Shown here one piece after another: positions 17,658 to 42,928 of a stretch of 64,000 nucleotides of DNA. The notes beneath the pieces are model-generated. The model had not been told where the DNA came from. It saw only the letters and a list, made by a program, of their open reading frames with translations, and searched no databases. The position numbers and the translations under genes are program-made. Origin of the DNA: a virus; the IMG/VR virus record IMGVR_UViG_3300025122_000010, positions 1 through 64,000 of that record; one strand, written 5' to 3'. Positions within the stretch are counted from its first letter, which is position 1. Each line of letters begins with the position of its first letter.

Positions 17658-17695
17658 GACACGGACACTACAACAAATCTGTGTCTATTTTTGTT
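17658..17695 (+). terminator. intrinsic terminator before the Ro gene
   Basis: GACACGGA at 17658-17665 pairs with TCTGTGTC at 17678-17685 (8 bp, one G-U), loop of 12, followed by TATTTTTGTTT. It ends a transcript just 45 bp before the Ro start, so the upstream region is probably made as separate RNA. Confidence 0.75.
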
Positions 17696-17739
17696 TGTCA
17701 AAAACTTCAACGCAGTATATACTCGAGGAGGTAAACGTT

Positions 17740-19353
17740 ATGGGAAAGTTCACAGGTACAGCAACTCCTAAGATTAATCATCGTAAGGCACATCCACGTG
17801 CTAGTGAGATCAAGGAAACAAGAAACTTTGAAAGTGGAAAGGCTTTCACTCTTCCTGCTAAGGAACGTCTAGCTACAAGAGTGATGACTTCAATGATTAA
17901 TGAGAAGTCATTCTATGGTGACACTACATCTGAGCTCTTGAATGATCTTAGAGAAGTTGCAAAGACAGATCCTCTATTCATTCTTAAGTTGGCTGCATAC
18001 ACTCGTAATATCATGTTCTTGCGTTCTGCTCCAACTTTTGTTCTAGCTCATGGCTCAATGATTCCTGAAGTGAAGCCTTATATTCGTCAGTGGACTCCTA
18101 AGATTCTAAAGAGAGCTGATGAACCAGCAGAGACACTTGCTGCAATCAATAGCATCTTTACTGAAAAGGGTGAGAAGCCAGTTATCCCTAACTCTATCAA
18201 GAAGGGTATCTCTGATGCATTGAGAAACTTTGACGCTTACCAGTTGATGAAGTATAAGGGTGAGGGACAGTCAGTTAATCTTTGGGATGTGTTCAATGTA
18301 TGTCACCCAAAGCCAACTAATGGTGAGCAAGCTTCAATGTGGAAGTCTTTCATGAATAGTGAACTCAATCCTGCTAAGACTTGGGAAACTGAGTTGTCTA
18401 AGACAGGACAGACTGGTAAGTCCAAGGCTAAGGCTTGGGAAGACATCATTCCTTCTATGGGTTATATGGCTATTATACGTAACCTTAGAAACTTCATTCA
18501 GGAAGGGTTGTCAGATGAATTGATTTCTGAAATTTGCAAGAAGTTGACAGACCCTAAGGCTGTTGCAAAGAACAAGCAGCTTCCATTCCGTTACTTCTCT
18601 GCTTATCGTGAGCTTGAAAAGCTTACAGGCAAAAGTATGTTTGCTCGTGACTACTGGGGAAATAGAGAAAATAGAGATGAAAAGGTGTTCACAGCTCCTG
18701 AGGAGAAGACTAAGATAAAGAAGCTAATGAGAGCTGTTGATAAGGCAATGGCACTTTCTGTTCAGAACGTCGATCAGTTGCCTGGTGTAACAGCGATCTT
18801 CTCTGATCACTCAGCTTCAATGGATAGCTCAATTTCAAGTAAGTCAAGCATTACGCATATGAACGTAGCAATGGTTCTTCATGCATTGACTGACTCTCTG
18901 AATCCTGAGAATGTTGGTGCAATCTTTGGTGAGTCAATTGCTGCTGTTGATTCTGAAGGTTTGACTCCAATGAAGTTTATTGAAGCAATGGTTAATACAG
19001 ATGTTGGTCACTCAACTAATGCTTGGTTGTGCTTTGATCATTTGACTAAGTCAAAGGTAAAAGTTGACAGAATCATCTTACTTTCAGACATGCAGTGTTA
19101 CAATTCTAGTGGATATGGACTTCGTTCTGGTTCACGAAGTGTATCTGACAAGTGGGATACATATCGCACCAAGGTTAACCCAGATGCTTGGTTCCATTCA
19201 ATTGATCTAGCTGGATATGGAACATCAGTTGAGCCGATCAATTCAAAGAATGTCTCACTCTTTGCCGGCTGGAACACAAGGTTCTTGGATGTTATCAAGG
19301 GAGTTGAGAAGGGTGTTGGTGGATTGGTTGAAGAGATTGAGAATTACAGTTAG
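17740..19353 (+). CDS. rsr: Ro60/TROVE-domain RNA-binding protein (Rsr-like)
   Basis: 537 aa from ATG 17740, chosen over the in-frame start at 17695 because GAGGAGG precedes it. N-terminal HEAT-like TROVE ring (residues about 35-340; RMTSMINEKSFYG, LKLAAYTRN, ALRNFDAYQL) and a C-terminal von Willebrand A domain with MIDAS DHSASM (about residue 357). Ro proteins bind Y RNAs and the ends of defective RNAs and can guide exonucleases. A phage copy suggests handling of tRNA or structured RNA. Codon use shows more ending in G than neighbours. Confidence 0.92.
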   Translation: MGKFTGTATPKINHRKAHPRASEIKETRNFESGKAFTLPAKERLATRVMTSMINEKSFYGDTTSELLNDLREVAKTDPLFILKLAAYTRNIMFLRSAPTFVLAHGSMIPEVKPYIRQWTPKILKRADEPAETLAAINSIFTEKGEKPVIPNSIKKGISDALRNFDAYQLMKYKGEGQSVNLWDVFNVCHPKPTNGEQASMWKSFMNSELNPAKTWETELSKTGQTGKSKAKAWEDIIPSMGYMAIIRNLRNFIQEGLSDELISEICKKLTDPKAVAKNKQLPFRYFSAYRELEKLTGKSMFARDYWGNRENRDEKVFTAPEEKTKIKKLMRAVDKAMALSVQNVDQLPGVTAIFSDHSASMDSSISSKSSITHMNVAMVLHALTDSLNPENVGAIFGESIAAVDSEGLTPMKFIEAMVNTDVGHSTNAWLCFDHLTKSKVKVDRIILLSDMQCYNSSGYGLRSGSRSVSDKWDTYRTKVNPDAWFHSIDLAGYGTSVEPINSKNVSLFAGWNTRFLDVIKGVEKGVGGLVEEIENYS

Positions 19354-21831: not shown

Positions 21832-23928
21832 ATGAAATTGTATGAAGGTATTACACACATTGATGATCTTGAGATCAGTAAGTTTATGGATTTGGCAAGA
21901 CGTATGCAAAACAAAGATGCGTCTATTGAGCTATCTACAAAATGGGATGGGAGTGCTAATCTAGGATTTGGGGTTGATGAAGAAGGAAACTTGTATTTTG
22001 ATAGAGCTGTAAAAGGACAAGCTGAAAGAAGAAGAAGTCCAAATGACTGGCCTAAAAAGCCAATGTTTAATGCCATACGATCTGCAGTTGCTGCAATGTT
22101 GACAAAGAAGAAAGAAATAGAATCTTTGATGCAGCCTGGTGAATGGACAGATTCTGAAATCATGTTTGAAACTATACCCAATTCAATAGAGTATGGTGAC
22201 AACATGATTATTGTTCATGATGTAAAATACAACAAATTAGTGAAAGCTCTTAGGGCTGCAAAAGCTAAGATAGATCTGTATTTCTTCAATCCTAAAACTG
22301 GCAAGATCGGAAAGCAAACACAAGAAGTGCGTTATGTATTCGGCGGTAAAGAAGTTATACCAACTAAGAAATACCAGTTGTCTATAAATGCTGATATTGA
22401 TAGACTAGAAGAGTTTCTATCAGAACCAAATGATGTATTTAAAAACATGTCAAACTTTGAAGTACTAGGAACTAGATCAGTAGGAAAAGATAAAGATAGG
22501 ATTGCAAAAGAGAAAGCTAGACTAGCTAAAGAGATAAAAACACAACAGCTTTCTATAAAAGATAAGTTGATTGACCAGATACTAAATAAGATTCCTGCAT
22601 CTAAAGTAGCTCCTCCTCCAGTATTTGATGATCAAGGTAACAACGTCTCAGGTAGTTGGCCTGAAGGGATAGTCATTAAAGATTTAGATTCAGGTGATCT
22701 AACTAAAGTTGTGTCTGTATTTCCAGAGATCAATAAGTTTCTTTGGCATTACAGAGAAATGGCAATGAGAGGAGCTGGGCCTGCTGGTAAGTTTGTTCCC
22801 GGTATAATGCAAGTTTTCAAAGACGATATAGGTGATAAAGCATTTGGTGTAAAGCAATTGAAAGTTGCAGGTGTAGCTTCATATATAAGAAAGAAATATC
22901 CAGGACAGCCTGCTAATGAGAAACTACTATTTTTCTTAAGAGACAAGAAATTCAAATTCAATAGAGCTAATCAAACAAAGAGCTTGTTTCTAAAAGCTGT
23001 CAAGAAAGCATTGACTGATCTGAATAGCTTGAGAAGAGAGTTTGAAACAGTTGGTAAGAAACAAACATTGAAAGTGCAAAAGGGCACATTCCAAAGAGTT
23101 GTACAATATAGTCCAGTTCAAATTAGAAAAACATATGAGACTTTCATTACAGTAGAAGACGAATTGAAAGCAATGCTAAAGAAAGTACAGAATGCAACTG
23201 CCAAAACACCCGAAGGGCTAGCTGTCCAATTGCTAAGAATATATTTTGGTAGAGACAATATGAAAAAGATGAATGAAGACTATGATAGTATAATTAATAG
23301 AGTTAGAAACATAATCAAAGAGAGATATTTAACTGAAGCTGCTAAACGAACTAAGATTGGTATAATACTTGGTAGGTTCCAACCTCCACAAAAAATGCAT
23401 ATTGAACTTATAGAAAGAGCTTTAAAAGAAAATGATCGTGTCTATGTATTTGTAGCTGGACAGGGCACAGACAAAAGAAATCCAATACCTCATCAACTTA
23501 GAGCAAATGTTCTTGAAAAATTTGTTAATGACAAAAGAGTTCAGATCTATGCTGCTAAAAGTGGATTTCTACCAGCACTGATTGATTCACATGCTGACTT
23601 GAATAATGTGGGTTTGATCAATGCATATTGTGGTACAGATAGAAAACCAAAATTCTTAGACATGTTCAAGTATTTTGACCATGATGATATAAAAATAAAA
23701 ATCAACGTGTTAAAGAGAGATCCTGATTCTGTCAGTTCAACAAAAGTAAGAGATGCTATTGGAAATAGTGATTATGAATTATTCAAATCATTAATGCCAG
23801 TTAAGTTAAGTAATAAAGATGCAATGTCACTATTTAAGAAATATCAAAGATTTATTAAGCCCATAAAAAATGAAGCATACATCAGAAAACTTGCAAGATC
23901 TATATTAGAAAGGACATTTTCTAAGTGA
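21832..23928 (+). CDS. fusion of RNA-ligase-like domain and NMN adenylyltransferase-like domain
   Basis: 698 aa. Nucleotidyltransferase core of Rnl2-type ligases: KWDGSA (residues 37-42, Lys adenylation site), EIMFETIP (motif III), PEGIVIKDL (motif IV, about 280) and a following Lys-rich motif V region. Helical linker to about 500. Then GIILGRFQPPQKMH (about 510) and SSTKVRDA (about 635), the two signatures of NadM/NadR-type adenylyltransferases, although the first His of HxxH is Gln. Could seal RNA ends while making or using NAD; substrate untested. Confidence 0.8.
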   Translation: MKLYEGITHIDDLEISKFMDLARRMQNKDASIELSTKWDGSANLGFGVDEEGNLYFDRAVKGQAERRRSPNDWPKKPMFNAIRSAVAAMLTKKKEIESLMQPGEWTDSEIMFETIPNSIEYGDNMIIVHDVKYNKLVKALRAAKAKIDLYFFNPKTGKIGKQTQEVRYVFGGKEVIPTKKYQLSINADIDRLEEFLSEPNDVFKNMSNFEVLGTRSVGKDKDRIAKEKARLAKEIKTQQLSIKDKLIDQILNKIPASKVAPPPVFDDQGNNVSGSWPEGIVIKDLDSGDLTKVVSVFPEINKFLWHYREMAMRGAGPAGKFVPGIMQVFKDDIGDKAFGVKQLKVAGVASYIRKKYPGQPANEKLLFFLRDKKFKFNRANQTKSLFLKAVKKALTDLNSLRREFETVGKKQTLKVQKGTFQRVVQYSPVQIRKTYETFITVEDELKAMLKKVQNATAKTPEGLAVQLLRIYFGRDNMKKMNEDYDSIINRVRNIIKERYLTEAAKRTKIGIILGRFQPPQKMHIELIERALKENDRVYVFVAGQGTDKRNPIPHQLRANVLEKFVNDKRVQIYAAKSGFLPALIDSHADLNNVGLINAYCGTDRKPKFLDMFKYFDHDDIKIKINVLKRDPDSVSSTKVRDAIGNSDYELFKSLMPVKLSNKDAMSLFKKYQRFIKPIKNEAYIRKLARSILERTFSK

Positions 23929-31329: not shown

Positions 31330-31419
31330 TCCGGTGTAGCTCAATTGGCAGAGCGCTTGGCTGTTAACCAAGAGGCCCTTACAAGGTATAAGTAGGTTCG
31401 ATCCCTACCGCCGGAGCCA
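31330..31419 (+). tRNA. tRNA-Asn(GTT) with expanded variable region
   Basis: Acceptor TCCGGTG/CGCCGGA, loop CTGTTAA, T-arm GTAGG-TTCGATC-CCTAC, encoded CCA. The variable region has about 16 extra nt including CCTT-AC-AAGG, unusual for Asn. Confidence 0.9.
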
Positions 31420-31426
31420 AAAAATG

Positions 31427-31550
31427 TGGGAAGGAGTGGTCACGAGAATGGACCACCTGACCTGAGAAAAAAATGGGATAAGCTCCAGATAATATCAGGT
31501 TATGATCATCAGGGTAGCTCCTGAAGTCAGTGGAATTCTGACCCTTCCCA
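31427..31550 (+). ncRNA. 124-nt structured RNA between tRNA-Asn and RlaP-like gene
   Basis: Closed by TGGGAAGG (31427-31434) with CCTTCCCA (31543-31550). Inside: GTGGTC/GACCAC (31436, 31451), TCAGG/CCTGA (31509, 31520) and GTCAG/CTGAC (31526, 31538), the last stacked directly on the closing helix. Multi-branch RNA, not a tRNA. Confidence 0.6.
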
Positions 31551-31574
31551 GGATTAAAAAAAAGGCAGAGATAT

Positions 31575-32267
31575 ATGACCAGAGAAGAAGTTGAAGCACG
31601 GACAATCTATCTGGTGAGAGCAGGTTCTCACGCTTACGGTCTGAATACAGAGACTTCTGATGTGGACACTCGAGGCATCTGTATTCCAACAGAGGAAGCC
31701 ATTTATGGTCTTGGTAAATTCGAGCAGTATGAAGATAAGGTCAATGACACAGTCATCTATGATATTCGCAAGTTCTTCAGTCTAGCAATGAAGTGCAACC
31801 CAAATATCATTGAACTCTTGTTTGTCAATGACGAACACGTTCTAGAAATGAGTGGTATCGGAAAGGATCTGAGACAACACAGACGACTATTCGTCTCTCA
31901 GCTAGCAAGGAAGACATTTGGTGGATATGCAATCAGTCAAATGAAGAAGTTTCATAGATCAGCTCTCCAACCTGGAGCTCCGGAGCTAAACTACAAGAAT
32001 GCAATGCACCTCATCAGACTCTTGAGGACAGGAATCAGCATTCTTCAAACAGGAGAGCCAATTGTCAACAGAGAGCATGATCGAAAAGAGCTTCTAGCAA
32101 TTCGTAGAGGAGAGCATTCTAACGGTTCGATTATGGATATTGCAGATGAACTGTTTGAAAAGCTTGACCTCATGCCCTCAACCCTACAAAGTGAGCCGAA
32201 CTACGAGATGCTGAATCATCTACTCATCAGTTACATCAAAGGCTATCTGAAAGGGAATGACGGATGA
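31575..32267 (+). CDS. RlaP/COG3541-like nucleotidyltransferase
   Basis: 230 aa. RAGSHAYGLNTETSDVDTRGICIP is the Pol-beta-type GS-x(n)-DxD catalytic motif (residues about 15-38), followed by helical DIRKFFSLAMKCNPNIIELLF. This is the RlaP/YcgL-like (COG3541) family, linked in the literature to RNA-ligase and Ro repair systems. More G+C-rich than neighbours. Could add or remove nucleotides at RNA ends; sits within the tRNA array. Confidence 0.8.
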   Translation: MTREEVEARTIYLVRAGSHAYGLNTETSDVDTRGICIPTEEAIYGLGKFEQYEDKVNDTVIYDIRKFFSLAMKCNPNIIELLFVNDEHVLEMSGIGKDLRQHRRLFVSQLARKTFGGYAISQMKKFHRSALQPGAPELNYKNAMHLIRLLRTGISILQTGEPIVNREHDRKELLAIRRGEHSNGSIMDIADELFEKLDLMPSTLQSEPNYEMLNHLLISYIKGYLKGNDG

Positions 32268-32521
32268 CAATTACGACTGCTGATCTGCGGCTAGGGCAAC
32301 GTGGTAAGTTCCTGGGCACATTCCAGAACGAGTGGAGGCAGAGGACTGTTGAAATCTTCGAGCATATCACAGATCAAGCACTAGTCATCACAGTTGGTCG
32401 TCCTTTCGATGAGACTCAAGATCCTGTGATTTGCACCGAACAGAGGACAGACTACGAATCAACTCTTCAGAAGATCGCAGATTGTGAGAAGCATAACAGA
32501 GGAATGTATGTATTTGAATGA
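32264..32521 (+). CDS. unknown protein downstream of RlaP-like gene
   Basis: 85 aa, ATGA overlap with the nucleotidyltransferase. Shares its higher G+C and codon style, so the two probably arrived together. Beta-rich; no motif recognised. Confidence 0.65.
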   Translation: MTITTADLRLGQRGKFLGTFQNEWRQRTVEIFEHITDQALVITVGRPFDETQDPVICTEQRTDYESTLQKIADCEKHNRGMYVFE

Positions 32522-32532
32522 TGGGGCTAAAA

Positions 32533-32766
32533 ATGGCTAAGGAAAAGGTTGTTGTCGAATTCGATGCTGATGAAGAATTGTCAAAGAAGATCAAGAGAGC
32601 AGAAGCAAAGTTACGCAGAAAAGATACAAAGATTGAAATTCTAGAAGCAGAGTTAGCCGAAGCAGAACGAATCATAAAAAGCTATAGAGGTATTGACGGT
32701 GCACTTCAAGAATTAGCAAGAGTTGCAGGAGATGTTGGATTGATTGATGGAGAATGGTATATTTGA
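32533..32766 (+). CDS. coiled-coil protein
   Basis: 77 aa from ATG 32533 (in-frame ATG 32518 also possible). Charged heptad-like helix over residues 10-55 (KIKRAEAKLRRKDTKIEILEAEL). Unknown function. Confidence 0.6.
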   Translation: MAKEKVVVEFDADEELSKKIKRAEAKLRRKDTKIEILEAELAEAERIIKSYRGIDGALQELARVAGDVGLIDGEWYI

Positions 32767-32773
32767 ATAATGT

Positions 32774-32853
32774 GGCCCCGTAGCTCCAAGGTATGGGAGA
32801 GCGTCTGGCTTGCACCCAGAAGGTTGAGAGTTCAATTCTCTCCGGGTCCACCA
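32774..32853 (+). tRNA. tRNA-Ala(TGC), atypical acceptor
   Basis: Acceptor GGCCCCG/CGGGTCC, loop CTTGCAC, CCA encoded. Position 3:70 is C x U instead of the G-U pair that marks alanine tRNAs; the second Ala tRNA (36055) does have it. Confidence 0.8.
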
Positions 32854-32860
32854 ACTTTGT

Positions 32861-32937
32861 GCCGGCGTAGCTGAGACTGGCTCTAGCAACGCCCTTGTAA
32901 GGCGTCGATGTGGGTTCGATTCCCTCCGCCGGCTCCA
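32861..32937 (+). tRNA. tRNA-Thr(TGT)
   Basis: Acceptor GCCGGCG/CGCCGGC, anticodon stem ACGCC/GGCGT, loop CTTGTAA, T-loop TTCGATT, CCA encoded. Confidence 0.93.
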
Positions 32938-32945
32938 TATTTACA

Positions 32946-33073
32946 GATCAACAAATCGTCTAATGGAAAGACACTTTGCTTGAGGAGGGCTGGTTCGACT
33001 CCAGCTGACGCGTAGTAGCTCACGAGGGAGAGCGCTGAGAAGAAATGCAGGTTCGAATCCTGTTTTGTTGATC
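32946..33073 (+). ncRNA. composite tRNA-like RNA closed by a 10-bp helix
   Basis: GATCAACAAA (32946-32955) pairs with TTTGTTGATC (33064-33073). Inside are two D-arm-like parts (GTCTAATGGAAAGAC; GCTCACGAGGGAGAGC) and two perfect T-arms (GCTGG-TTCGACT-CCAGC; GCAGG-TTCGAAT-CCTGT). No proper anticodon arm or CCA. TTTATTTTG follows, so the outer helix could also terminate transcription. Resembles tRNA-mimic Y RNAs; a degenerate tRNA pair is the alternative. Confidence 0.6.
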
Positions 33074-33090
33074 TTTATTTTGAACTTTTG

Positions 33091-33118
33091 TTTACTATCA
33101 CTTAGAATTGATTATATT
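33091..33118 (+). promoter_or_regulatory. RNA-array promoter 2
   Basis: TTTACT, 16 bp, TATATT; 28 bp nearly identical to promoter 1. Starts a new transcript with the tRNA-like RNA at 33141. Confidence 0.8.
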
Positions 33119-33140
33119 AGCTTATAAGGAAAAAGGAATT

Positions 33141-33227
33141 GGTCGCACCTCTGATCGTCTAATTAGGGAAGACACCGCATATAAATGCGGAGATAAGGGT
33201 TCGATCCCCTCATGAGGTTACGCGATC
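33141..33227 (+). ncRNA. tRNA-like RNA with extended terminal helix
   Basis: GGTCGC+ACCTC (33141-33151) pairs with GAGGT+GCGATC (33214-33227, TAC bulge). D-arm-like GTC...GAC, an anticodon-like arm CCGCA-TATAAA-TGCGG whose loop has only 6 nt, and a T-arm AGGG-TTCGATC-CCCT. No CCA. The stem running past the acceptor is a Y-RNA-like feature; a decayed tRNA is the alternative. Confidence 0.55.
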
Positions 33228-33231
33228 ACTA

Positions 33232-33314
33232 GGTAGAATGATAGGGCTTGCCGGCTTTAAATAACTTCTACCGATTGGGTATGGGGTTAGAGTTACGGCA
33301 ATAACTCTAACTCC
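33232..33314 (+). ncRNA. hairpin pair following the tRNA-like RNA
   Basis: GGTAGAA/TTCTACC (33232, 33266) and a 13-bp stem 33283-33295 with 33302-33314 (one G-U), loop CGGCAA. No T-tract, so either a processing/attenuation structure or part of the preceding RNA. Confidence 0.5.
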
Positions 33315-33338
33315 TGCTCAACTTACTAGAGATTAGAT

Positions 33339-33515
33339 ATGCCAAAAATCAAAGACACATTCAAGATTGACGAAGTGATAGAGAAACTAATTCCATCATT
33401 GTTTAGACGAAGGGAGTTGTATGCGAAGCTAGCTGAATTAAACTTAAAGAACGATGAATTCAATAAACTGTTCACAAAGTTACACAATAATTTACTACCA
33501 CACAGGAGGAATTAA
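33339..33515 (+). CDS. 58-aa unknown protein
   Basis: ATG 33339; helical, basic, no motif. Its 3' end carries the AGGAGG ribosome site of the next gene. Confidence 0.55.
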   Translation: MPKIKDTFKIDEVIEKLIPSLFRRRELYAKLAELNLKNDEFNKLFTKLHNNLLPHRRN

Positions 33516-33517
33516 CA

Positions 33518-33712
33518 ATGCCTTTGTATCCAGATGTTAAGGTCAAGTTGGTGGGTTCAGACGGAAATGCTTTCGCTATTTTGGGAAAGGTTTCTAAGGC
33601 ACTCAAGCGAGCTGGGCATGGGGATGCGGCTGATAAGTATACTGAAGAGTCGATGGCTGGTGACTATGACAACTTACTTGTCACTGCTTGCAAGTATGTG
33701 ACGGTTAGCTAG
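33518..33712 (+). CDS. small protein, paralogue of the 36774 gene
   Basis: 64 aa. GSDGNAFAILGKVSKALK and AGDYDNLL align with SGPAGNAYAVMGNVESILK and SGDYNNLL of the gene at 36774. A phage family of unknown role. Strong AGGAGG site. Confidence 0.7.
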   Translation: MPLYPDVKVKLVGSDGNAFAILGKVSKALKRAGHGDAADKYTEESMAGDYDNLLVTACKYVTVS

Positions 33713-33720
33713 GAGGGAAG

Positions 33721-34227
33721 ATGAATACCCAAACGGTTAATCGAGTCAAGGGAATTGTTTCTCAGATGAAGCATCTTACTGACGAACTGGATTCTCTGAT
33801 GAATGATCTGGGAATAGAAGCAAGTGATTCTGTTAATGAAGATTTAGATCCATATGCTGTAGCAATGGCTTCAATGCATCAAAAGATATCAGATCAATTG
33901 CCAGAAGATGAGAAATTGGAAGTTTTCTATTCGGCTTATACAACTAGTCCAGCTGGATTTCCAGTTGACAACCTTGACAAAGTTGCAATTAAGGGACTAG
34001 CAGTTATTCAAGAAAATGCAGATGATTTTTTTGATGTTGGTGAAGACTATATTTCAGATATTTTGGAAAACCCAACCTGGCTTACATTAGCAGTTATCGC
34101 TAACAGGATAATTATAACAACAGGAGACTATAATCACCAGTTTCTTGAGGGAGTTTGTAAGACAGCCGGTGCAATAATTGACGAAGGTGTTGAAGTTCCG
34201 GTTTACGAATTGTCAATGGGAAGTTAG
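33721..34227 (+). CDS. unknown protein
   Basis: 168 aa, helical and acidic; AGGAGG upstream. No motif recognised. Confidence 0.65.
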   Translation: MNTQTVNRVKGIVSQMKHLTDELDSLMNDLGIEASDSVNEDLDPYAVAMASMHQKISDQLPEDEKLEVFYSAYTTSPAGFPVDNLDKVAIKGLAVIQENADDFFDVGEDYISDILENPTWLTLAVIANRIIITTGDYNHQFLEGVCKTAGAIIDEGVEVPVYELSMGS

Positions 34228-34234
34228 GAAATGT

Positions 34235-34311
34235 AGGGCCGTAGATCAATTGGTCAGATCACTAGATTGTCAATCTAGAGGGTGCGAGTTCAAGTCTCGT
34301 CGGCTCTGCCA
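34235..34311 (+). tRNA. tRNA-Asp(GTC)
   Basis: Acceptor AGGGCCG/CGGCTCT, stem CTAGA/TCTAG, loop TTGTCAA, CCA encoded. Confidence 0.9.
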
Positions 34312-34323
34312 AAAAAATTAAAT

Positions 34324-34401
34324 CGGAGTGTAGGCTAGCTCGGCTAAGTCACCTGGTTTGGGGCCAGGACACCGGGGGTTCGAATCCCTCCACTCCGACC
34401 A
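34324..34401 (+). tRNA. tRNA-Pro(TGG)
   Basis: Acceptor CGGAGTG/CACTCCG, stem CCTGG/CCAGG, loop TTTGGGG, CCA encoded. Confidence 0.9.
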
Positions 34402-34422
34402 AAAAAATCTTAGGAGATTATG

Positions 34423-34638
34423 ATGAGTAAACTCAAGGGAAGTATAATCTTGCATAGCGGAAGTATAATCTTGTATAGCTCCACCACTCATGGTCATCCA
34501 GGTTCACACTTGATTGATGACGACAAAGGAAACAAGGTTTGGATTCGTGCAGTATTCACTCCATCAGATACTCTAGAAGCTTTAGATGAAGCTGAGAAGT
34601 TTGATGATGAAATTGTTTTGAATACGATACCGATATAA
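34423..34638 (+). CDS. small protein with internal duplication
   Basis: 71 aa from ATG 34423 (AGGAG upstream; ATG 34420 also possible). Two tandem 21-bp repeats at its start encode GSIILHS and GSIILYS. Unknown function. Confidence 0.6.
   Translation: MSKLKGSIILHSGSIILYSSTTHGHPGSHLIDDDKGNKVWIRAVFTPSDTLEALDEAEKFDDEIVLNTIPI
34438..34479 (+). repeat. 21-bp tandem repeat inside a gene
   Basis: Copies at 34438-34458 and 34459-34479 differ at one base (CAT versus TAT codon), indicating a recent in-frame duplication. Confidence 0.85.
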
Positions 34639-34648
34639 GGAGTTTCAA

Positions 34649-34831
34649 ATGATTATCACTAGCTACTGTTATGTTATCTATATGGCTATTGTTCTTCTCA
34701 GATTAGTTATGACAGCAGTATCGATCGTGTCCGAGCCCCAATATTGGGGCAAAGATGATACAAATTGGAGCACTCTTATTTCAATAATTGCTGGAGCATT
34801 TTTGGTATACGGAGTTCACAAAGGATGGTAA
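34649..34831 (+). CDS. small membrane protein
   Basis: 60 aa with two hydrophobic spans (YVIYMAIVLLRLVMTAVSIV; LISIIAGAFLVYGV). Unknown function. Confidence 0.6.
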   Translation: MIITSYCYVIYMAIVLLRLVMTAVSIVSEPQYWGKDDTNWSTLISIIAGAFLVYGVHKGW

Positions 34832-34834
34832 ACA

Positions 34835-34975
34835 ATGTCACGAACAGTTAGAAGTAAATATCGAAACATGGCTGCAAAGAATTCTAGGCAAAGCTCTGCA
34901 GGTCCTATGAAGCGTAAGCCAAAGTATGAGACTGCTCGTGAAGCTATTGAGAAGCAATTGATGGAAAAGGAATAG
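34835..34975 (+). CDS. 46-aa basic protein
   Basis: ATG 34835; Arg/Lys/Ser-rich. Ends 1 nt before tRNA-Trp. Weak evidence beyond placement and an AAAGGA site. Confidence 0.45.
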   Translation: MSRTVRSKYRNMAAKNSRQSSAGPMKRKPKYETAREAIEKQLMEKE

Positions 34976-34976
34976 T

Positions 34977-35052
34977 TCGTCCCAATGTTCCAAGGCAGGC
35001 GGCAGAGTCTCCAAAACTCAGCGGCGAGGTTCGATTCCTCGGGGGCGAGCCA
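34977..35052 (+). tRNA. tRNA-Trp(CCA), odd D-arm
   Basis: Acceptor TCGTCCC/GGGGCGA, loop CTCCAAA, T-arm CGAGG-TTCGATT-CCTCG, CCA encoded. The D-arm region does not form a normal stem. Confidence 0.75.
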
Positions 35053-35060
35053 AAAATTGT

Positions 35061-35135
35061 GGCTAGGTGGTGTATCAGGTTGCACTTATGACTGAAGATC
35101 ATAAAGAGCGGGTTCAAATCCTGCCCTAGCCACCA
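35061..35135 (+). tRNA. tRNA-Phe(GAA)
   Basis: Acceptor GGCTAGG/CCTAGCC, loop CTGAAGA, CCA encoded. Confidence 0.92.
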
Positions 35136-35151
35136 TTAAAACGAGAATAAT

Positions 35152-35406
35152 ATGGCAGATTCATTGGAAATACAATTAAGAGAAGCTTCATTACTTTTTT
35201 CACAAAATTCAGATTGTTGTGCACCAAGTGATCTAGGTAGTGATATCAAGATAAGCATGATTGATGGAGGTGGAGGACCTTATTTTGTAATTGAAACAGA
35301 ACGTTGGGCAATGGATAAGCCGGAAGATTTAATCAAGCTATTAGAATATGCTAAGACATGTTTAGATTGGTTTAACAAAGACGACGTGGGGGATGGGACT
35401 GCATGA
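35152..35406 (+). CDS. unknown protein
   Basis: 84 aa; beta part (FVIETERWAM) then helix (PEDLIKLLEYAKTCLDWF). No family recognised. Confidence 0.6.
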   Translation: MADSLEIQLREASLLFSQNSDCCAPSDLGSDIKISMIDGGGGPYFVIETERWAMDKPEDLIKLLEYAKTCLDWFNKDDVGDGTA

Positions 35407-35478
35407 GGTGGTCACTTAGTTAAAGTGTAAGGGGTGTTTACTTATCTTCAATGATATTTATTCTAGAGGAGATAAGTA

Positions 35479-36069
35479 ATGAACTGTAAACATTGTGACA
35501 AAGAGTTAGTAGGAAAAAGAAAAGGCGCAAAGTATTGTGATATATACTGCTTAAACAGACATTCAAACGAGAATAGAATATTCACTGATTCACATAGAAA
35601 AAAGATAAGCGAAAAGCACAAAGGAAAGAGATTATCCGAAGATCATAAAAGAAAAATAAGTGAGAGTCTTAAAGGAGTTAACGTAGGTAAGAAACATTCT
35701 GCTGAATCAAAACATAACATGTCAGTAGCACGAAAAAAGTTATTAAAGAACAGACCAGATTTACATCCTAATAATCTTTGCAGAGGAAAAAAGAGTTATC
35801 CGCAAGAATTGTTATTTGATGAACTTACTAAAATCTTCAAAAAAGTAGATAATGAAGTCTATTATAAAAGCTATTGGATTGATCTATTAGTTAATGATAT
35901 TTTAGCAGTTGAGGTAGATGGAGAGTTTTGGCATAAAGGAAGAGAAAATTCTGATAGAGAAAAAGATAGTGTAATTAGAACCAAATATAGTTTAGTAAGA
36001 ATACCTGCAAAAGATGTTTTAAATGATGTCAACAAAGTAGTAAAGAGAATATGTGGGCTGGTAGTTTAA
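35479..36069 (+). CDS. NUMOD3-containing homing-type endonuclease
   Basis: 196 aa. Two Cys pairs at the start, NUMOD3 repeats (ISEKHKGKRLSEDH; KISESLKG; GKKHSAES) for DNA binding, and a C-terminal Vsr/EDxHD-like nuclease (VEVDGEFWHKG, then D-x3-KD and a VRIPA strand). Free-standing homing endonucleases commonly invade phage tRNA arrays. Its last five codons lie inside the tRNA at 36055. AGGAGA ribosome site. Confidence 0.8.
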   Translation: MNCKHCDKELVGKRKGAKYCDIYCLNRHSNENRIFTDSHRKKISEKHKGKRLSEDHKRKISESLKGVNVGKKHSAESKHNMSVARKKLLKNRPDLHPNNLCRGKKSYPQELLFDELTKIFKKVDNEVYYKSYWIDLLVNDILAVEVDGEFWHKGRENSDREKDSVIRTKYSLVRIPAKDVLNDVNKVVKRICGLVV

Positions 36070-36129
36070 TTGGGAAAATACTAGACTTGCACTCTTGTGT
36101 CAAGGGTTCGAATCCCTTCCGGTCCACCA
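36055..36129 (+). tRNA. tRNA-Ala(TGC) with G3-U70
   Basis: Acceptor GGGCTGG/CCGGTCC contains the G3-U70 alanine identity pair; loop CTTGCAC; CCA encoded. Its first 15 nt also encode the end of the endonuclease. Confidence 0.88.
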
Positions 36130-36137
36130 AAAAACAT

Positions 36138-36209
36138 GGGCGAGTAACTCAAGCAATATTTTAGGCAGAGTACCGGTAGTTACGGGTTCGAATCCCGCCT
36201 CGTCCACCA
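36138..36209 (+). tRNA. tRNA-like gene lacking an anticodon arm
   Basis: Good acceptor GGGCGAG/CTCGTCC, D-stem ACTC/GAGT with a 17-nt loop, T-arm CGGG-TTCGAAT-CCCG and CCA. Only about 10 nt separate D- and T-arms, so no anticodon arm can form. Decayed tRNA or a tRNA mimic. Confidence 0.65.
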
Positions 36210-36216
36210 ACTAAGT

Positions 36217-36290
36217 TGGCTCATACACTAACGGCAAGTGGACAGGCTTTGACCCTGTCGATCCTGGTTCGAATCCAGGTGGGCCAGCCA
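36217..36290 (+). tRNA. tRNA-Gln(TTG)
   Basis: Acceptor TGGCTCA/TGGGCCA, stem ACAGG/CCTGT, loop CTTTGAC, CCA encoded. Confidence 0.92.
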
Positions 36291-36307
36291 AAAATTAAGG
36301 GGTTGCA

Positions 36308-36526
36308 ATGAAGATAACGAAAATCAAGAGTGAAGTTTCTGATACTGATGGGTTGTTCGTTACCATGACTAGACAAGAAGCTATGAGAGCAATCTCTTCT
36401 CTTGCTCATCAACTTGCAGAAAGAGACTCTAATTCAGGGAGAACGGAATGGATGAATGTTACGATGGTCGATGGTGATATTAAAGAACATAGCAAATACT
36501 TTTCAATTGCAGTTGAAGAGAAGTAG
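36308..36526 (+). CDS. unknown protein
   Basis: 72 aa; DGLFVTMTRQEAMRAISSLAHQL resembles short phage proteins with one helix after a beta hairpin. Stop is 1 nt before the next tRNA. Confidence 0.6.
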   Translation: MKITKIKSEVSDTDGLFVTMTRQEAMRAISSLAHQLAERDSNSGRTEWMNVTMVDGDIKEHSKYFSIAVEEK

Positions 36527-36527
36527 T

Positions 36528-36604
36528 GGGCGATTAACTCAGCTGGTTAGAGTACTTGCTCGACAAGCAAGAAGTCACTGGTTCGAATCCAGTATCGCCC
36601 ACCA
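36528..36604 (+). tRNA. tRNA-Val(GAC) with C33
   Basis: Acceptor GGGCGAT/ATCGCCC, stem CTTGC/GCAAG, loop TCGACAA, CCA encoded. Position 33 is C, where U is nearly universal. Confidence 0.87.
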
Positions 36605-36625
36605 AAAAAATATTTTGAGAAAATG

Positions 36626-36653
36626 TTTACTATTGCTTAGAATTGATTATATT
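36626..36653 (+). promoter_or_regulatory. RNA-array promoter 3
   Basis: TTTACT, 16 bp, TATATT; spacer differs from copies 1 and 2 only at TTG versus TCA. Precedes tRNA-Glu. Confidence 0.8.
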
Positions 36654-36674
36654 AGCTATACGGAAACAAACTAT

Positions 36675-36752
36675 GACTCAGTGGAGCAACTTGGTCAGCT
36701 CACTAGACTTTCAATCTAGAGGTTGCGGGTTCGATCCCCGTCTGAGTCACCA
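36675..36752 (+). tRNA. tRNA-Glu(TTC)
   Basis: Acceptor GACTCAG/CTGAGTC, stem CTAGA/TCTAG, loop CTTTCAA, CCA encoded. Confidence 0.93.
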
Positions 36753-36773
36753 AAAACTAACTAGGAGGTTACA

Positions 36774-37028
36774 ATGCCTAAGTATGATGTTGATCTCCAG
36801 ACGGACCTTTCTGGTCCAGCAGGCAACGCATATGCAGTTATGGGCAATGTAGAATCAATTCTCAAGCAACTTAAACGACCTCCAATAGAGGTAAAGAAGT
36901 ATCTCAAAGATGCAAAGTCTGGAGATTATAATAACTTGCTTAAGGTAACAAATGAATGGGTTAATCTGATTGATACTTCGAATTCATATCCAGACATTCT
37001 TGGAGAAGTAGAAATAAAGCGAATATAA
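36774..37028 (+). CDS. small protein, paralogue of the 33518 gene
   Basis: 84 aa; GNAYAVMGNVESILKQL and SGDYNNLLKV match the 33518 protein. Unknown role. AGGAGG site. Confidence 0.7.
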   Translation: MPKYDVDLQTDLSGPAGNAYAVMGNVESILKQLKRPPIEVKKYLKDAKSGDYNNLLKVTNEWVNLIDTSNSYPDILGEVEIKRI

Positions 37029-37031
37029 TAA

Positions 37032-37108
37032 GGCCCCGTAGTTCAATTGGCGAGATCGCCGGCCTCTCAAGCCGGAGACGAGGAGTTCAAATCTCCCCGG
37101 GGCTACCA
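37032..37108 (+). tRNA. tRNA-Glu(CTC)
   Basis: Acceptor GGCCCCG/CGGGGCT, stem CCGGC/GCCGG, loop CTCTCAA, CCA encoded. Confidence 0.88.
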
Positions 37109-37116
37109 AAATTCAT

Positions 37117-37192
37117 CCACCCGTGGCGCAGGTGGTAGCGCACCGGACTTTTAATCCGTTGGTCGTAGGTTCGAATCCTACCGGGTGGACCA
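37117..37192 (+). tRNA. tRNA-Lys(TTT)
   Basis: Acceptor CCACCCG/CGGGTGG, loop CTTTTAA, T-arm GTAGG-TTCGAAT-CCTAC, CCA encoded. Confidence 0.92.
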
Positions 37193-37219
37193 AAAAAAAC
37201 AATCATAAGGAGAAGTAAG

Positions 37220-37462
37220 ATGAGCCGCTCCAAGCGGTTTGAACAAAGAGAAGATAGGGTAACTACAAAGAACGACAAGAAGAATCAGAATCGTAGTGAA
37301 CGCAAACAACGAAAGGCATCTATTGCAGATCAGATTGCACTTGAGGAAGAAGAGGAGTTGCTGGATTTCCTAGAAGTGTGTGGTGATTATATCGATGATG
37401 AAGAATTTGAAAGAATGAAAAAGAAAGTTAAGGAATTGCAAAAGCACAGTAAGAACTTCTAG
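37220..37462 (+). CDS. charged helical protein
   Basis: 80 aa. Basic N-terminal half, acidic ALEEEEELLDFLE, then a basic helix. Possibly nucleic-acid binding; function unknown. AAGGAG site. Confidence 0.6.
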   Translation: MSRSKRFEQREDRVTTKNDKKNQNRSERKQRKASIADQIALEEEEELLDFLEVCGDYIDDEEFERMKKKVKELQKHSKNF

Positions 37463-37475
37463 AAAGGAAAGCAAA

Positions 37476-37679
37476 ATGATTAAGATCACGGTTTCAGTTC
37501 CTTGTATTGGTAGTGATGCTGAGGTCAGTATCCAAAAGTTGACTTCAATTACTAGAAGTCATGGAAAAACTACAACTCCTATCCAAGTTGATTTAAGTGA
37601 ATCACCCGGTCTTAATAAAGCAACAGTTTCACTTGAAGATTTAGAATCAGCAGTTAAAGCAATTAGGAATTCTATCTAA
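37476..37679 (+). CDS. unknown protein
   Basis: 67 aa, beta-rich with a C-terminal helix. Ends 2 nt before tRNA-Tyr. No motif. Confidence 0.55.
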   Translation: MIKITVSVPCIGSDAEVSIQKLTSITRSHGKTTTPIQVDLSESPGLNKATVSLEDLESAVKAIRNSI

Positions 37680-37681
37680 GT

Positions 37682-37768
37682 GGGTCAGTATGCAAATTGG
37701 TGAAGCAGGCAGTCTGTAAAACTGTTCCGTAAGATCCGTTGTAGGTTCAAATCCTGCCTGACCCACCA
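37682..37768 (+). tRNA. tRNA-Tyr(GTA)
   Basis: Acceptor GGGTCAG/CTGACCC, loop CTGTAAA, long variable arm as expected for bacterial Tyr, CCA encoded. Confidence 0.93.
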
Positions 37769-37778
37769 AAAATTTATT

Positions 37779-37854
37779 GGACCTCTAGCTCAATGGGTAG
37801 AGCAACTGACTCATAATCAGTAGGTTATAGGTTCAAGTCCTATGGGGTCCACCA
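37779..37854 (+). tRNA. tRNA-Met(CAT) or Ile2
   Basis: Acceptor GGACCTC/GGGGTCC, stem ACTGA/TCAGT, loop CTCATAA, CCA encoded. Elongator Met or lysidine-modified Ile cannot be told apart by eye. Confidence 0.9.
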
Positions 37855-37869
37855 AAAAGGAAAACAACA

Positions 37870-38316
37870 ATGTCTACTCGTTCTTGTATAGCTGCTCTAT
37901 GTGATGATGGAAAGATCAGAGCTATCAATTGTCATTATGATGGTTACCCAGACGGTGGTGGTGTTGGTGGTGTTCTAGAACGCTCATTCAACGATCAATA
38001 TAAGATCGAAGATTTGCTGAAGCTCGGAGCATTGAGTTGTTTGCACCATAGCATTGATTGTCCTCCAGGTCATTCATATGCTACACCAGTTGAAAGTTAC
38101 ACTGTAGCATATCATCGTGATCGAGGAGAAGATTTAGAAGTTGGAGAAGAATACGATTTTGAAGAACGTGATCCTAAGGATGTTTTGAGGAAACTAAGAG
38201 AGACTGGAGATTGGCAGTACGTTGACTTCTTGTATTACTGGAATGGAACGAAGTGGTATTACATATGCAACTATGATTGTGAACACACCAATCTACCAGG
38301 AAAAGGAACAAACTAA
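37870..38316 (+). CDS. conserved phage protein, unknown function
   Basis: 148 aa. STRSCIAALCDDGKIRAINCHYDGYPDGGGVGGVL is a widespread phage family start (STRS.IA...G.......HWDGY). Function unknown. Confidence 0.75.
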   Translation: MSTRSCIAALCDDGKIRAINCHYDGYPDGGGVGGVLERSFNDQYKIEDLLKLGALSCLHHSIDCPPGHSYATPVESYTVAYHRDRGEDLEVGEEYDFEERDPKDVLRKLRETGDWQYVDFLYYWNGTKWYYICNYDCEHTNLPGKGTN

Positions 38317-38317
38317 C

Positions 38318-38737
38318 ATGCCACGTTTTGAAGATCAGTTAGAGATCGATAAAACAATAGATGAGTTCAACAGACTTGTAAGTATTTCAAAAGAAGTTGG
38401 TGAATTAGTTCTTTCAATTAGAAACCCAGGACTTAAAAATGAAACTGCTATTGATGTTGAATGTGGTTCCTGGGATCCACCTGATGATGTTGTTGTAAGT
38501 TTTTGGATATCTCAATACAGAGAAGATGAAGCAGTAACTTTCCCAAATAGTTATCTCAGAATGACTGATGAAGAAATAACTGCAATAGAAGAAGAGAAGA
38601 AAGAAGCATCGCGCTTAAAGTTAGAAGAAGCAAAAGAAGAAAAGAAGAAGAAAGATGCAGAAGAAGTGAAGACAAGAGAATTGGCTCAATACAAACAACT
38701 ACAAGAGAAATATGGAGAATCTATAGGAGAAGTCTAA
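38318..38737 (+). CDS. acidic/coiled-coil protein
   Basis: 139 aa from ATG 38318; an upstream in-frame ATG (38222) would sit inside the preceding gene. Long charged helix over residues 85-130 (EEKKEASRLKLEEAKEEKKKK). Unknown. Confidence 0.6.
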   Translation: MPRFEDQLEIDKTIDEFNRLVSISKEVGELVLSIRNPGLKNETAIDVECGSWDPPDDVVVSFWISQYREDEAVTFPNSYLRMTDEEITAIEEEKKEASRLKLEEAKEEKKKKDAEEVKTRELAQYKQLQEKYGESIGEV

Positions 38738-38913
38738 TGTCTAGGATAATATATATCACTTCACCAGATTATTCAAGACATGCAATCACTGTAGAAAAGC
38801 TTGTTCCTTCAAAGCGTAGACCTAGAGTTAAGAGAGTTGTAGGTGTTAAGTCAATCCCTCTTTTGACTAAGGAGCAACGACATGCTAGAAAGGCAATTGA
38901 CATCTATGGATAA
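38737..38913 (+). CDS. 58-aa basic protein
   Basis: TAATG overlap with the preceding stop. Basic, with PSKRRPRVKRVVGVK and LLTKEQRHARKAI. Unknown. Confidence 0.55.
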   Translation: MSRIIYITSPDYSRHAITVEKLVPSKRRPRVKRVVGVKSIPLLTKEQRHARKAIDIYG

Positions 38914-39100
38914 GGAAAAAGAACTCAGTGATATCTACGAAGAATATATGTGGGAATTAGAACATTGGGCTAAAATCAGAGTTAAAGCGGAAAATCGAAT
39001 TAAGGAAATTAGGTTCAAATTAGCCAAGTCGATCAACGCTACAAGAAGTTTTGATTCATCACAAGAGGTTGTTGACGAACTTATGCAAAGAGTTAGATAA
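38882..39100 (+). CDS. small helical protein
   Basis: 72 aa; start at 38882 has AAGGAG upstream. Charged helix (KEKELSDIYEEYMWELEHWAKIR). Stop is followed directly by tRNA-His. Confidence 0.6.
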   Translation: MLERQLTSMDKEKELSDIYEEYMWELEHWAKIRVKAENRIKEIRFKLAKSINATRSFDSSQEVVDELMQRVR

Positions 39101-39177
39101 GGGGCGGTATGCTCAATTGGTAGAGCTCCAGGTTGTGGACCTGGCGGTTGTCAGTTCGACCCTGACCCGTCCCTCCA
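39101..39177 (+). tRNA. tRNA-His(GTG)
   Basis: Acceptor GGGGCGG/CCGTCCC, stem CCAGG/CCTGG, loop TTGTGGA, CCA encoded. Confidence 0.92.
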
Positions 39178-39190
39178 AAAAGGTTATGCT

Positions 39191-39391
39191 ATGTTAGTTG
39201 CTACTGTGTGTTATACAAATCTAGATAATTATGAAAGATATCACTGGCCAACTAAGATGTTTAATCCTAGAATTGGTGACAGAGTTTGTGCAAGAAATGA
39301 TAGTGCACAGTTGTATATAAGCAGTATAGCACACGTACAAACTAAACATGGAGATGTATATCTGTACATTCATTTGAGTGGTGCAGTGTAG
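39191..39391 (+). CDS. unknown protein
   Basis: 66 aa, beta-rich. Weak ribosome site (AGGTTATGCT). No motif. Confidence 0.5.
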   Translation: MLVATVCYTNLDNYERYHWPTKMFNPRIGDRVCARNDSAQLYISSIAHVQTKHGDVYLYIHLSGAV

Positions 39392-39422
39392 TATACAAAA
39401 CTGTTTAGAAATGTAGAAATGT

Positions 39423-39500
39423 AGGGAGGTAGCCAAGTCCGGTTAAAGCGCATGTCTGATAAACATGTTATCGTGGGTTCAAATCCCACCCTCCCTACCA
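39423..39500 (+). tRNA. tRNA-Ile(GAT)
   Basis: Acceptor AGGGAGG/CCTCCCT, stem CATGT/ACATG, loop CTGATAA, CCA encoded. Confidence 0.92.
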
Positions 39501-39534
39501 AAAAAAACATTGAGGTTACAATGTTCTCATTATT

Positions 39535-39609
39535 CCCCAGTTCGTCTAATGAATAGGATACGGAGCTACGGACTCTGTGATATAGGTTTGATCCCTATAC
39601 TGGGGACCA
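39535..39609 (+). tRNA. tRNA-Arg(ACG)
   Basis: Acceptor CCCCAGT/ACTGGGG, loop CTACGGA, CCA encoded. T-loop is TTTGATC, with U56 instead of C56. Confidence 0.87.
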
Positions 39610-39625
39610 ATTTATTAGAGGTTTT

Positions 39626-39874
39626 ATGACTTACATCAATGTAAAATTTGATATCGATATTGCAATGGGGGCGGCAGCTGAAATAGAAATTGAAAAGATT
39701 AGACAGTTATTGCTTAATCGAAGAGTTTCATTCACTAGTGACGATTATCACACCCAGACTACTAGAGAAGGAATAGTGAAACATGTAACAATAAAGTGGC
39801 GAACTCATGAGTGCCGCATAGGTTTTGAGGACCAGGTAATGCATGAGGTTGTAGGAAACATTGAAATTCTCTAG
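39626..39874 (+). CDS. unknown protein
   Basis: 82 aa; INVKFDIDIAMGAAAEIEIEKIRQLL then beta strands. No motif recognised. Confidence 0.55.
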   Translation: MTYINVKFDIDIAMGAAAEIEIEKIRQLLLNRRVSFTSDDYHTQTTREGIVKHVTIKWRTHECRIGFEDQVMHEVVGNIEIL

Positions 39875-39921
39875 GAGATGGAATGATAACTCAATTAGTT
39901 ATAAATTATTACGTTTTGTTG

Positions 39922-39949
39922 TTTACTATTGCTTAGAATTGTTTATATT
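39922..39949 (+). promoter_or_regulatory. RNA-array promoter 4
   Basis: TTTACT, 16 bp, TATATT. Transcription would begin within a few bases of the tRNA-Ser 5' end, leaving almost no leader. Confidence 0.8.
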
Positions 39950-39959
39950 AGCTATGTAA

Positions 39960-40051
39960 GGAGGGTGACCGGCTGGACGAGGAACTAATTTGCTAAATTA
40001 GCAATGCAGCATCTGGCTGCATTAAGGGTTCAAGTCCCTTACCCTCCTCCA
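39960..40051 (+). tRNA. tRNA-Ser(GCT)
   Basis: Acceptor GGAGGGT/ACCCTCC, stem CTAAT/ATTAG, loop TTGCTAA, long variable arm (ATGCAG...CTGCAT), CCA encoded. Confidence 0.92.
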
Positions 40052-40069
40052 ATTTGAAAGGATAGTAAA

Positions 40070-42926: not shown

Positions 42927-42928
42927 GT

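What the first reader, a model, noticed from the sequence alone, without database searches (positions are those of the whole stretch)
21832..23928. Ligase-NMN adenylyltransferase fusion protein
Rnl2-type adenylation motifs (KWDGSA, EGIVIKD) and NadM/NadR signatures (GRFQPPQKMH, SSTKVRDA) share one chain. The first His of the HxxH motif is Gln. The pair may couple NAD synthesis to end-sealing, use NAD as adenylate donor, or handle NAD-capped RNA.
Basis: partly seen in the sequence, partly recalled or inferred. Interest (0 to 1): 0.72.

Follow-up and report, generated by a model that had tools for sequence, protein, structure and literature searches.

The report
Phage ligase-nucleotidyltransferase repair fusion
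A marine virus of bacteria makes one protein that joins a nucleic-acid-ligase-type enzyme to a second nucleotide-transferring enzyme; in many other marine viruses the same two enzymes are neighbouring genes among end-repair genes, so it is probably part of an overlooked viral kit for mending broken RNA.

Summary
One 698-aa ORF carries ligase-type motifs (KWDG, E109, EGIVIKD, K292) and a HIGH-superfamily nucleotidyltransferase (NTase; GRFQPPQKMH...SSTKVR). It is intact in two contigs. The N-part is not demonstrably Rnl2: it is homologous to uncharacterised jumbo-phage proteins (E 4e-13) and more distantly to Pfam DUF6267, whose own model resembles RNA ligases. The fusion is rare (0 of 117 DUF6267 loci). 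The pairing is not: a HIGH-NTase lies downstream in 29 of 30 IMG/VR loci and 14 of 20 GTDB loci with at least 5 kb of following DNA, often beside a P-loop kinase, a Pol-beta NTase or a HAD phosphatase. The window's virus also carries a TROVE protein, a CCA-adding enzyme (although 32 of 34 tRNA genes already encode CCA) and no other ligase found. I read it as an RNA end-repair enzyme (confidence 0.45). NMN as substrate is possible, not shown. Relatives often begin with leaders like T4 capsid-targeting sequences; in the fusion that cleavage motif occurs exactly twice, at the start of each enzyme. Hence the bold reading: a capsid-packaged polyprotein cut into two injected enzymes.

The parts
21832..23928 (+). 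Whole fusion ORF, 698 aa
   Evidence: second copy in L002/L013
21832..22746 (+). Ligase-type (covalent nucleotidyltransferase) domain, aa 1-305, relative of jumbo-phage proteins and more distantly of DUF6267
21838..21849 (+). LYEG, aa 3-6: possible prohead-protease-type cleavage motif [LI].E|[AGSD] at the start of the ligase domain
   Evidence: interpretation inferred
21937..21957 (+). Motif I TKWDGSA with candidate nucleophile K37
   Evidence: K, D, G invariant
22156..22158 (+). E109, motif III candidate (SEIMFETIPNSIEY)
   Evidence: invariant in 4 of 4
22663..22683 (+). Motif IV EGIVIKD
22705..22707 (+). K292, motif V (LTKVVS)
22747..23328 (+). Region aa 306-499 between the two enzymes; partly aligned with the jumbo-phage relatives, fold untested
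   Evidence: A1, A3
23329..23340 (+). LTEA, aa 500-503: the only other [LI].E[AGSD] site, at the junction just before the NTase
23341..23925 (+). HIGH-superfamily nucleotidyltransferase domain, aa 504-698
23371..23400 (+). GRFQPPQKMH (first His replaced by Gln)
23734..23757 (+). SSTKVRDA (ISSTxxR-like motif)
17695..19353 (+). TROVE/Ro60-type RNA-binding protein, same virus, same strand, about 2.5 kb upstream
   Evidence: Pfam TROVE E 2.1e-31
31330..46929 (+). Cluster of 34 tRNA genes, 32 with encoded CCA

Best explanation
It is a two-enzyme nucleic-acid end-repair protein of a bacteriophage, most likely for RNA (damaged tRNA). The N-terminal domain is a ligase-type enzyme: K37 takes AMP from a nucleotide, passes it to a 5'-phosphate end and seals it to a 3'-OH end. 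The C-terminal HIGH-NTase makes an adenylylated product used in the same repair job: most plausibly NAD+ from NMN plus ATP, less likely direct adenylylation of a phosphorylated nucleic-acid end. Shown: both domains in one chain, conserved catalytic motifs, recurrent gene pairing, the company of kinase, Pol-beta NTase and phosphatase genes in relatives, and TROVE plus CCA enzyme in this virus. Inferred: catalysis, RNA rather than DNA, tRNA as substrate, and the NTase substrate.
For: Motifs I, III, IV and V are invariant across window and jumbo-phage relatives and, in their own form, in 78 of 78 full-length DUF6267 proteins (two of the 80 loci have split or truncated ORFs and were left out). DUF6267 model (pLDDT 79.5): rows covering the beta core are ligases, RNA ligases first (Naegleria Rnl Z 7.0, 181 aligned, 4.0 A; T. 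brucei REL1 Z 6.7; Trl1 6.4; T4 Rnl1 6.1; T4 Rnl2 6.0; DNA ligases 5.5 and below); Foldseek rank 1 is DNA ligase I at E 0.25. Motif V lies near the C-terminus of DUF6267, leaving no room for the OB domain of DNA ligases (the OB rule is recalled). Neighbours of DUF6267: HIGH-NTase in 29 of 30 IMG/VR and 14 of 20 GTDB loci with >=5 kb downstream; P-loop kinase of AAA_33/zeta-toxin type in 29 of 80 loci; Pol-beta motif in 26 of 26 long NTases; HAD NT5C in 6 loci. Module genes fuse in other combinations: NTase-kinase (L107), kinase-Pol-beta-NTase (L062). Jumbo phages Phosso and Atu_ph07 put a Pol-beta-motif gene next to the ligase-like gene, Paride three genes on; RNA-ligase-associated Pol-beta NTases, TROVE and CCA enzymes are described as phage RNA repair in PMC7824862 section 21. 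Same virus: CCA enzyme E 2.1e-67 although 32 of 34 tRNA genes encode CCA, TROVE; no other ligase found.
Against: No Pfam RNA_ligase or PDB-sequence match to any ligase; hhalign of both profiles to T4 Rnl2 not significant. Fold Z of 6-7 is not above unrelated helical-bundle rows (8.6-7) in the same list. The window's own N-domain model failed (pLDDT 52). No AAA_33 kinase, KptA or 2H enzyme found in the 84-kb record. In some cyanophages (ACG-2014f, P-SSM2/P-SSM5) the two genes appear to lie far apart (positions in different records), and 6 of 20 GTDB loci with >=5 kb lack the NTase. Linked genes also sit next to replication and virion genes, so DNA work is possible.
Confidence: 0.45

Rival explanations
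1. DNA end repair of the injected genome: ligase, kinase, Pol-beta and nuclease-like proteins act as a small strand-break repair set on phage DNA.
For: Ligase plus kinase plus Pol-beta is also a DNA-repair set; genes lie next to a DnaB-type helicase (46 loci) and virion genes; Foldseek rank 1 is DNA ligase I.
Against: No OB domain after motif V; RNA ligases rank above DNA ligases (differences about 1 Z, close to a tie); TROVE, CCA enzyme and tRNAs in this virus.
Confidence: 0.2
2. NAD+ replenishment against host NADase defence (NARP2-like), the HIGH-NTase being the working enzyme and the ligase-like part an NAD or ATP user.
For: Most of the function-named NCBIfam hits of the NTase are NMN adenylyltransferases; L107 has NTase then kinase, the order of NadR; phage NAD+ salvage is established (PMC9503650 passages).
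Against: No NadV in the 84-kb record (record possibly incomplete); the kinase is AAA_33/zeta type, its match to AAA_28 (the NadR-type kinase family, recalled) only E 0.038 and below cut-off; a conserved ligase-type partner is not explained.
Confidence: 0.2
3. Cap-type chemistry: one or both domains add or exchange AMP or NMN-type groups on RNA 5' ends rather than sealing breaks.
For: Both domains are nucleotidyltransferases; a HIGH-NTase acting on a 5'-phosphate would give an AppRNA end, the intermediate of ligation (inference).
Against: I know of no HIGH-NTase that acts on RNA ends (recalled); no decapping partner in the pair.
Confidence: 0.1
4. Chance fusion without functional meaning, the NTase being degenerate (Gln for the first His).
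For: Fusion seen in only one virus type.
Against: The partners are neighbouring genes in diverse phages; second His and SSTKVR kept; intact in two contigs.
Confidence: 0.05

Closest known systems
Pfam DUF6267 (PF19782) genes next to 'cytidyltransferase' genes of cyanophages and pelagiphages (e.g. S-SSM4 CYXG_00144/00145)
   Same: Motif order H..E, KWDG, acidic motif III, PN.I.Y, EG.V, K.V..F...N; HIGH-NTase partner
   Different: Separate genes; DUF6267 has Asp in motif III and a long helical insert before motif IV; the window protein is not recognised by the Pfam model
Jumbo-phage hypothetical proteins (Paride_0025, Phosso 446, Atu_ph07 AUZ94878)
   Same: Significant homology of the N-domain (E 3.8e-13), same motifs including Glu in motif III
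   Different: Not fused; near a Pol-beta-motif gene instead of a HIGH-NTase
ATP-dependent RNA ligases Rnl1/Rnl2/Rnl5
   Same: Motif set and, for DUF6267, predicted core fold
   Different: No significant sequence match; extra HIGH-NTase domain
NadM/NadR NMN adenylyltransferases and phage NAD+ salvage
   Same: HIGH-NTase signatures
   Different: Far below curated cut-offs; no NadV found; ligase partner
Phage RNA-repair sets (RNA ligase + PNK/HAD + RlaP Pol-beta + CCA enzyme + TROVE; PMC7824862)
   Same: Same kinds of partner enzymes
   Different: Different ligase family; HIGH-NTase as a constant partner is not mentioned in the section read

Membership tests
ATP-dependent RNA ligase superfamily | Motif I KxDG, III E, IV EG, V K in order | tested here: met
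   (invariant columns K37, D39, G40, E109, E278, G279, K292)
ATP-dependent RNA ligase superfamily | Match to curated RNA_ligase profile (PF09414) | tested here: not met
ATP-dependent RNA ligase superfamily | Ligase fold | tested here: inconclusive
   DUF6267 model: ligases at Z 5.3-7.0; window N-domain model failed, pLDDT 52
ATP-dependent RNA ligase superfamily | Lysyl-AMP formation and sealing | not testable with these tools
   needs assay
DUF6267 (PF19782) | Pfam model match | tested here: not met
   (none at E<=1); 45 of 45 IMG/VR relatives tested do match
DUF6267 (PF19782) | Distant profile similarity | tested here: met
   hhalign score 34.2; 0 of 200 column shuffles reach it, best 25.6; eight control profiles 12.0-19.4; without the window row only 24.0
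NMN adenylyltransferase (NadM/NadR) | HIGH-type motif and ISSTxxR motif | tested here: met
   (second His kept, first is Gln)
NMN adenylyltransferase (NadM/NadR) | Curated score cut-off | tested here: not met
   TIGR01526 30.2 vs 341 bits; TIGR01527 17.3 vs 181 bits
NMN adenylyltransferase (NadM/NadR) | NMN + ATP to NAD+ | not testable with these tools
   needs assay
Phage NAD+ salvage (NARP2 type) | NadV-type NAPRTase partner | tested here: inconclusive
   none in the 84-kb record, which may be a fragment
Phage RNA-repair set | Company of tRNA-repair enzymes | tested here: met
   TROVE, CCA enzyme, tRNAs in this virus; kinase, Pol-beta, HAD in relatives
Phage RNA-repair set | 5' kinase in the same genome | tested here: inconclusive
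   AAA_33 not found in the 84-kb record, which may be a fragment
T4-type packaged internal protein | Short N-terminal leader ending in a [LI]xE cleavage site | tested here: inconclusive
   motif at aa 3 and aa 500 but the leader is only 5 aa; relatives: kinase 27/39, NTase 26/54, DUF6267 25/74
T4-type packaged internal protein | Found in virions and cut there | not testable with these tools
   needs virion proteomics

The most novel reading that the evidence does not exclude
A capsid-packaged repair polyprotein. The module's enzymes (ligase-type DUF6267 family, P-loop kinase, Pol-beta and HIGH nucleotidyltransferases) are loaded into phage heads by T4-like capsid-targeting leaders and injected with the DNA, so that tRNA or end repair starts before any phage gene is expressed. 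In this virus ligase and NTase are made as one chain and cut apart in the prohead at LYE|G and LTE|A, the only two sites of this type in 698 residues, each at the start of an enzyme.
Probability: 0.2. Interest if true: 0.82.

Novelty: new variant of a known kind. Interest (0 to 1): 0.56.

Why it matters
The fusion and the conserved neighbourhood give it a concrete, testable activity (ligase-type adenylyltransferase) and partners. If right, abundant marine phages carry an undescribed end-repair kit with three unrelated nucleotidyltransferase folds, and possibly bring it in their heads.

Tried and rejected
NAD-dependent ligase reading: rejected for lack of room for a domain Ia (36 residues before K37) and of PF01653 in the record. 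'The fusion is widespread': rejected, 0 of 80 and 0 of 37; PHROG_455 spans both domains in one profile, but I found no fused member, so that stays unexplained. Missing first His as a sign of inactivity: weak, since Thr stands there in 54 of 54 relatives. NadR-like kinase reading: not favoured.

Led nowhere: IMG/VR scans for further fusions found only the same protein; L014, L015, L016 were chance matches. Paride-type scan of IMG/VR: none. First GTDB scan with the fusion: none. PDB sequence searches with profiles: no ligase. Mixed alignments A5 and A6 put DUF6267 rows on the wrong part and were discarded. Window N-domain model unusable. A phrog_1462 search of the record found nothing, but its control rang nowhere either; the same holds for the T4-protease family search. 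No literature hit for DUF6267 or 'cytitidyltransferase' in the held library, which covers open-licence PMC papers only.

Full report
Observation. The window lies in an 84,102-base IMG/VR phage record. A second IMG/VR contig carries the identical protein on 14 kb of 99.9% identical DNA.

N-terminal enzyme. Pfam and PHROGs do not recognise it. tblastn of residues 1-493 gives weak matches to hypothetical proteins of PA5oct-like Pseudomonas phages and Sinorhizobium phage Phosso, starting at residue 4 or 5. With Atu_ph07 added, an HMM from the three jumbo-phage proteins alone scores the window ORF at E 3.8e-13, and hhalign gives probability 96% over 281 columns. Invariant in these four, among others: H9, K37, D39, G40, G47, R58, G103, E109, P116, N117, Y121, E278, G279, V281, K292, F297, N301. 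The same skeleton occurs in DUF6267 proteins of cyanophages and pelagiphages. Profile similarity of the window group to DUF6267 scores 34.2, against at most 25.6 in 200 column shuffles, 21.6 for the reversed profile, and 12.0-19.4 for eight control profiles. The match covers mainly motifs IV-V, and without the window row the score falls to 24.0, so the link to DUF6267 is supported but thin.

Is it a ligase? For DUF6267 I predicted one structure (L095 protein, 45 rows, pLDDT 79.5, pTM 0.66). Foldseek gave no match at E<=0.001; rank 1 was DNA ligase I at E 0.25. VIA-align rows spanning the core are RNA and DNA ligases (Z 7.0 to 5.3, 159-191 residues), but unrelated helical bundles score as high or higher (8.6 to 7), probably because of the long helical insert. 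I take the ligase assignment as likely (about 0.8) from motifs plus fold, not proven. Sequence-only searches do not show it (45 of 45 match DUF6267, 1 of 45 matches RNA_lig_T4_1 at E 0.016).

C-terminal enzyme. The HIGH-NTase is clear. The closest function-named models are NadR/NadM and CoaD types, all far below cut-off. Related viral NTases have GRFNPPTxGH-like motifs: Thr at the first-His position in 54 of 54.

Pairing. In S-SSM4, P-HM2, S-H9-1, S-WAM1 and S-CAM1 the DUF6267 gene is followed directly by the NTase gene; in HTVC008M two genes intervene (six annotated phages examined). HIGH-NTase on the same strand downstream: 54 of 80; 29 of 30 with >=5 kb of following DNA, 37 of 40 with >=3.5 kb, 45 of 50 with >=2.5 kb. 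In 37 GTDB-contig loci (mostly marine MAGs; one isolate, Nonlabens xiamenensis): 22 of 37, and 14 of 20 with >=5 kb. Fusions of the two: none in either set. Counter-examples: positions suggesting separation in ACG-2014f and P-SSM2/P-SSM5 (read across different records of the same phage type).

Neighbourhood. Between or beside them: P-loop kinase of the AAA_33/zeta-toxin kind in 29 of 80 loci; HAD NT5C in 6; Pol-beta-like genes; DnaB-type helicase upstream in 46 (one member of each cluster was scanned with Pfam where a Pfam name is given). All 26 NTases whose domain starts after residue 250 carry a Pol-beta motif before it. L107 fuses NTase with kinase; L062 fuses kinase, Pol-beta and NTase. 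In Phosso and Atu_ph07 the gene after the ligase-like one, and in Paride the third gene after it, has a Pol-beta-type motif GSxGK...GDID (by pattern only, Pfam negative for all three and hhalign not significant for Phosso and Paride). Section 21 of PMC7824862 (read whole) describes phage RNA repair as RNA ligases with kinases, HAD phosphatases, RlaP Pol-beta NTases, CCA enzymes and TROVE proteins. The window's virus has TROVE, a CCA enzyme at record 78681-80114 and 34 tRNA genes, 32 with CCA already encoded, so its CCA enzyme is better explained by repair than by maturation. Within 84 kb no other ligase, KptA, 2H, AAA_33 kinase or NadV was found; the record may be incomplete.

Packaging idea. 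N-termini of the relatives looked like T4 capsid-targeting leaders. A pattern chosen after seeing them (M, 3-14 residues, then [LI].E[AGSD]) fits 27 of 39 kinases, 26 of 54 NTases and 25 of 74 DUF6267, against 0 of 37 helicases, 0 of 37 small upstream ORFs, 5 of 85 other upstream and 13 of 117 other downstream ORFs, 4 of 28 and 6 of 17 for two upstream families, 16 of 71 for a downstream family, and 0 of 6 HAD. Rows are related, so these are not independent. In T4, ten N-terminal residues suffice for targeting and cleavage follows Glu (passages of PMC9026906; PMC5694885; PMC3012670). In the fusion the unanchored core [LI].E[AGSD] occurs only at residues 3 and 500, each at the start of an enzyme. 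Against: a five-residue leader is short, the pattern is post hoc, and the virus's own protease specificity is unknown. In this record M[KR]L starts cluster in the 78-84 kb region (6 of 11 ORFs against 3 of 98 elsewhere); the fusion is one of the three outside.

Verdict. A real, rare fusion of a common but undescribed pair (undescribed as far as searches of the held library show). Most likely an RNA end-repair enzyme; substrate of the NTase open; packaging a bold but testable extra.

Noticed in passing
L062:7186-9924, L107:7191-8471: Kinase-PolBeta-HIGH-NTase and HIGH-NTase-kinase fusions next to DUF6267 genes
   Followed up: partly
window record 78681-80114 (L098:4682-6118): CCA-adding enzyme although 32 of 34 phage tRNA genes already encode CCA
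   Followed up: partly
window record 78341-83650: Cluster of ORFs starting M[KR]L, several with LxE-like leaders; may be this virus's own head-targeting leader
   Followed up: partly
32949-33071 and 36138-36206: Rfam tRNA matches not listed by ARAGORN; the first is 123 bases long, so perhaps an interrupted tRNA
   Followed up: no
L005:5374-6789 and upstream ORFs of L017-L096: Large gene directly upstream of DUF6267 (phrog_1462 and others) with an NP[AS]DIWMI motif; looks nuclease-like by eye, no Pfam match
   Followed up: partly
4040-5176, 11247-12323, 59873-60904: Three genes matching phrog_540 (nucleotide-sugar epimerase) in one phage
   Followed up: no
47247-48422: IMP dehydrogenase/GMP reductase-type gene just after the tRNA cluster
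   Followed up: no
27596-28027: NUDIX gene 3.7 kb downstream of the fusion, also starting MKL
   Followed up: no
cyanophage records: HIGH-NTase genes annotated as ribonucleotide reductase A or NrdB in several records, probably misannotation
   Followed up: no
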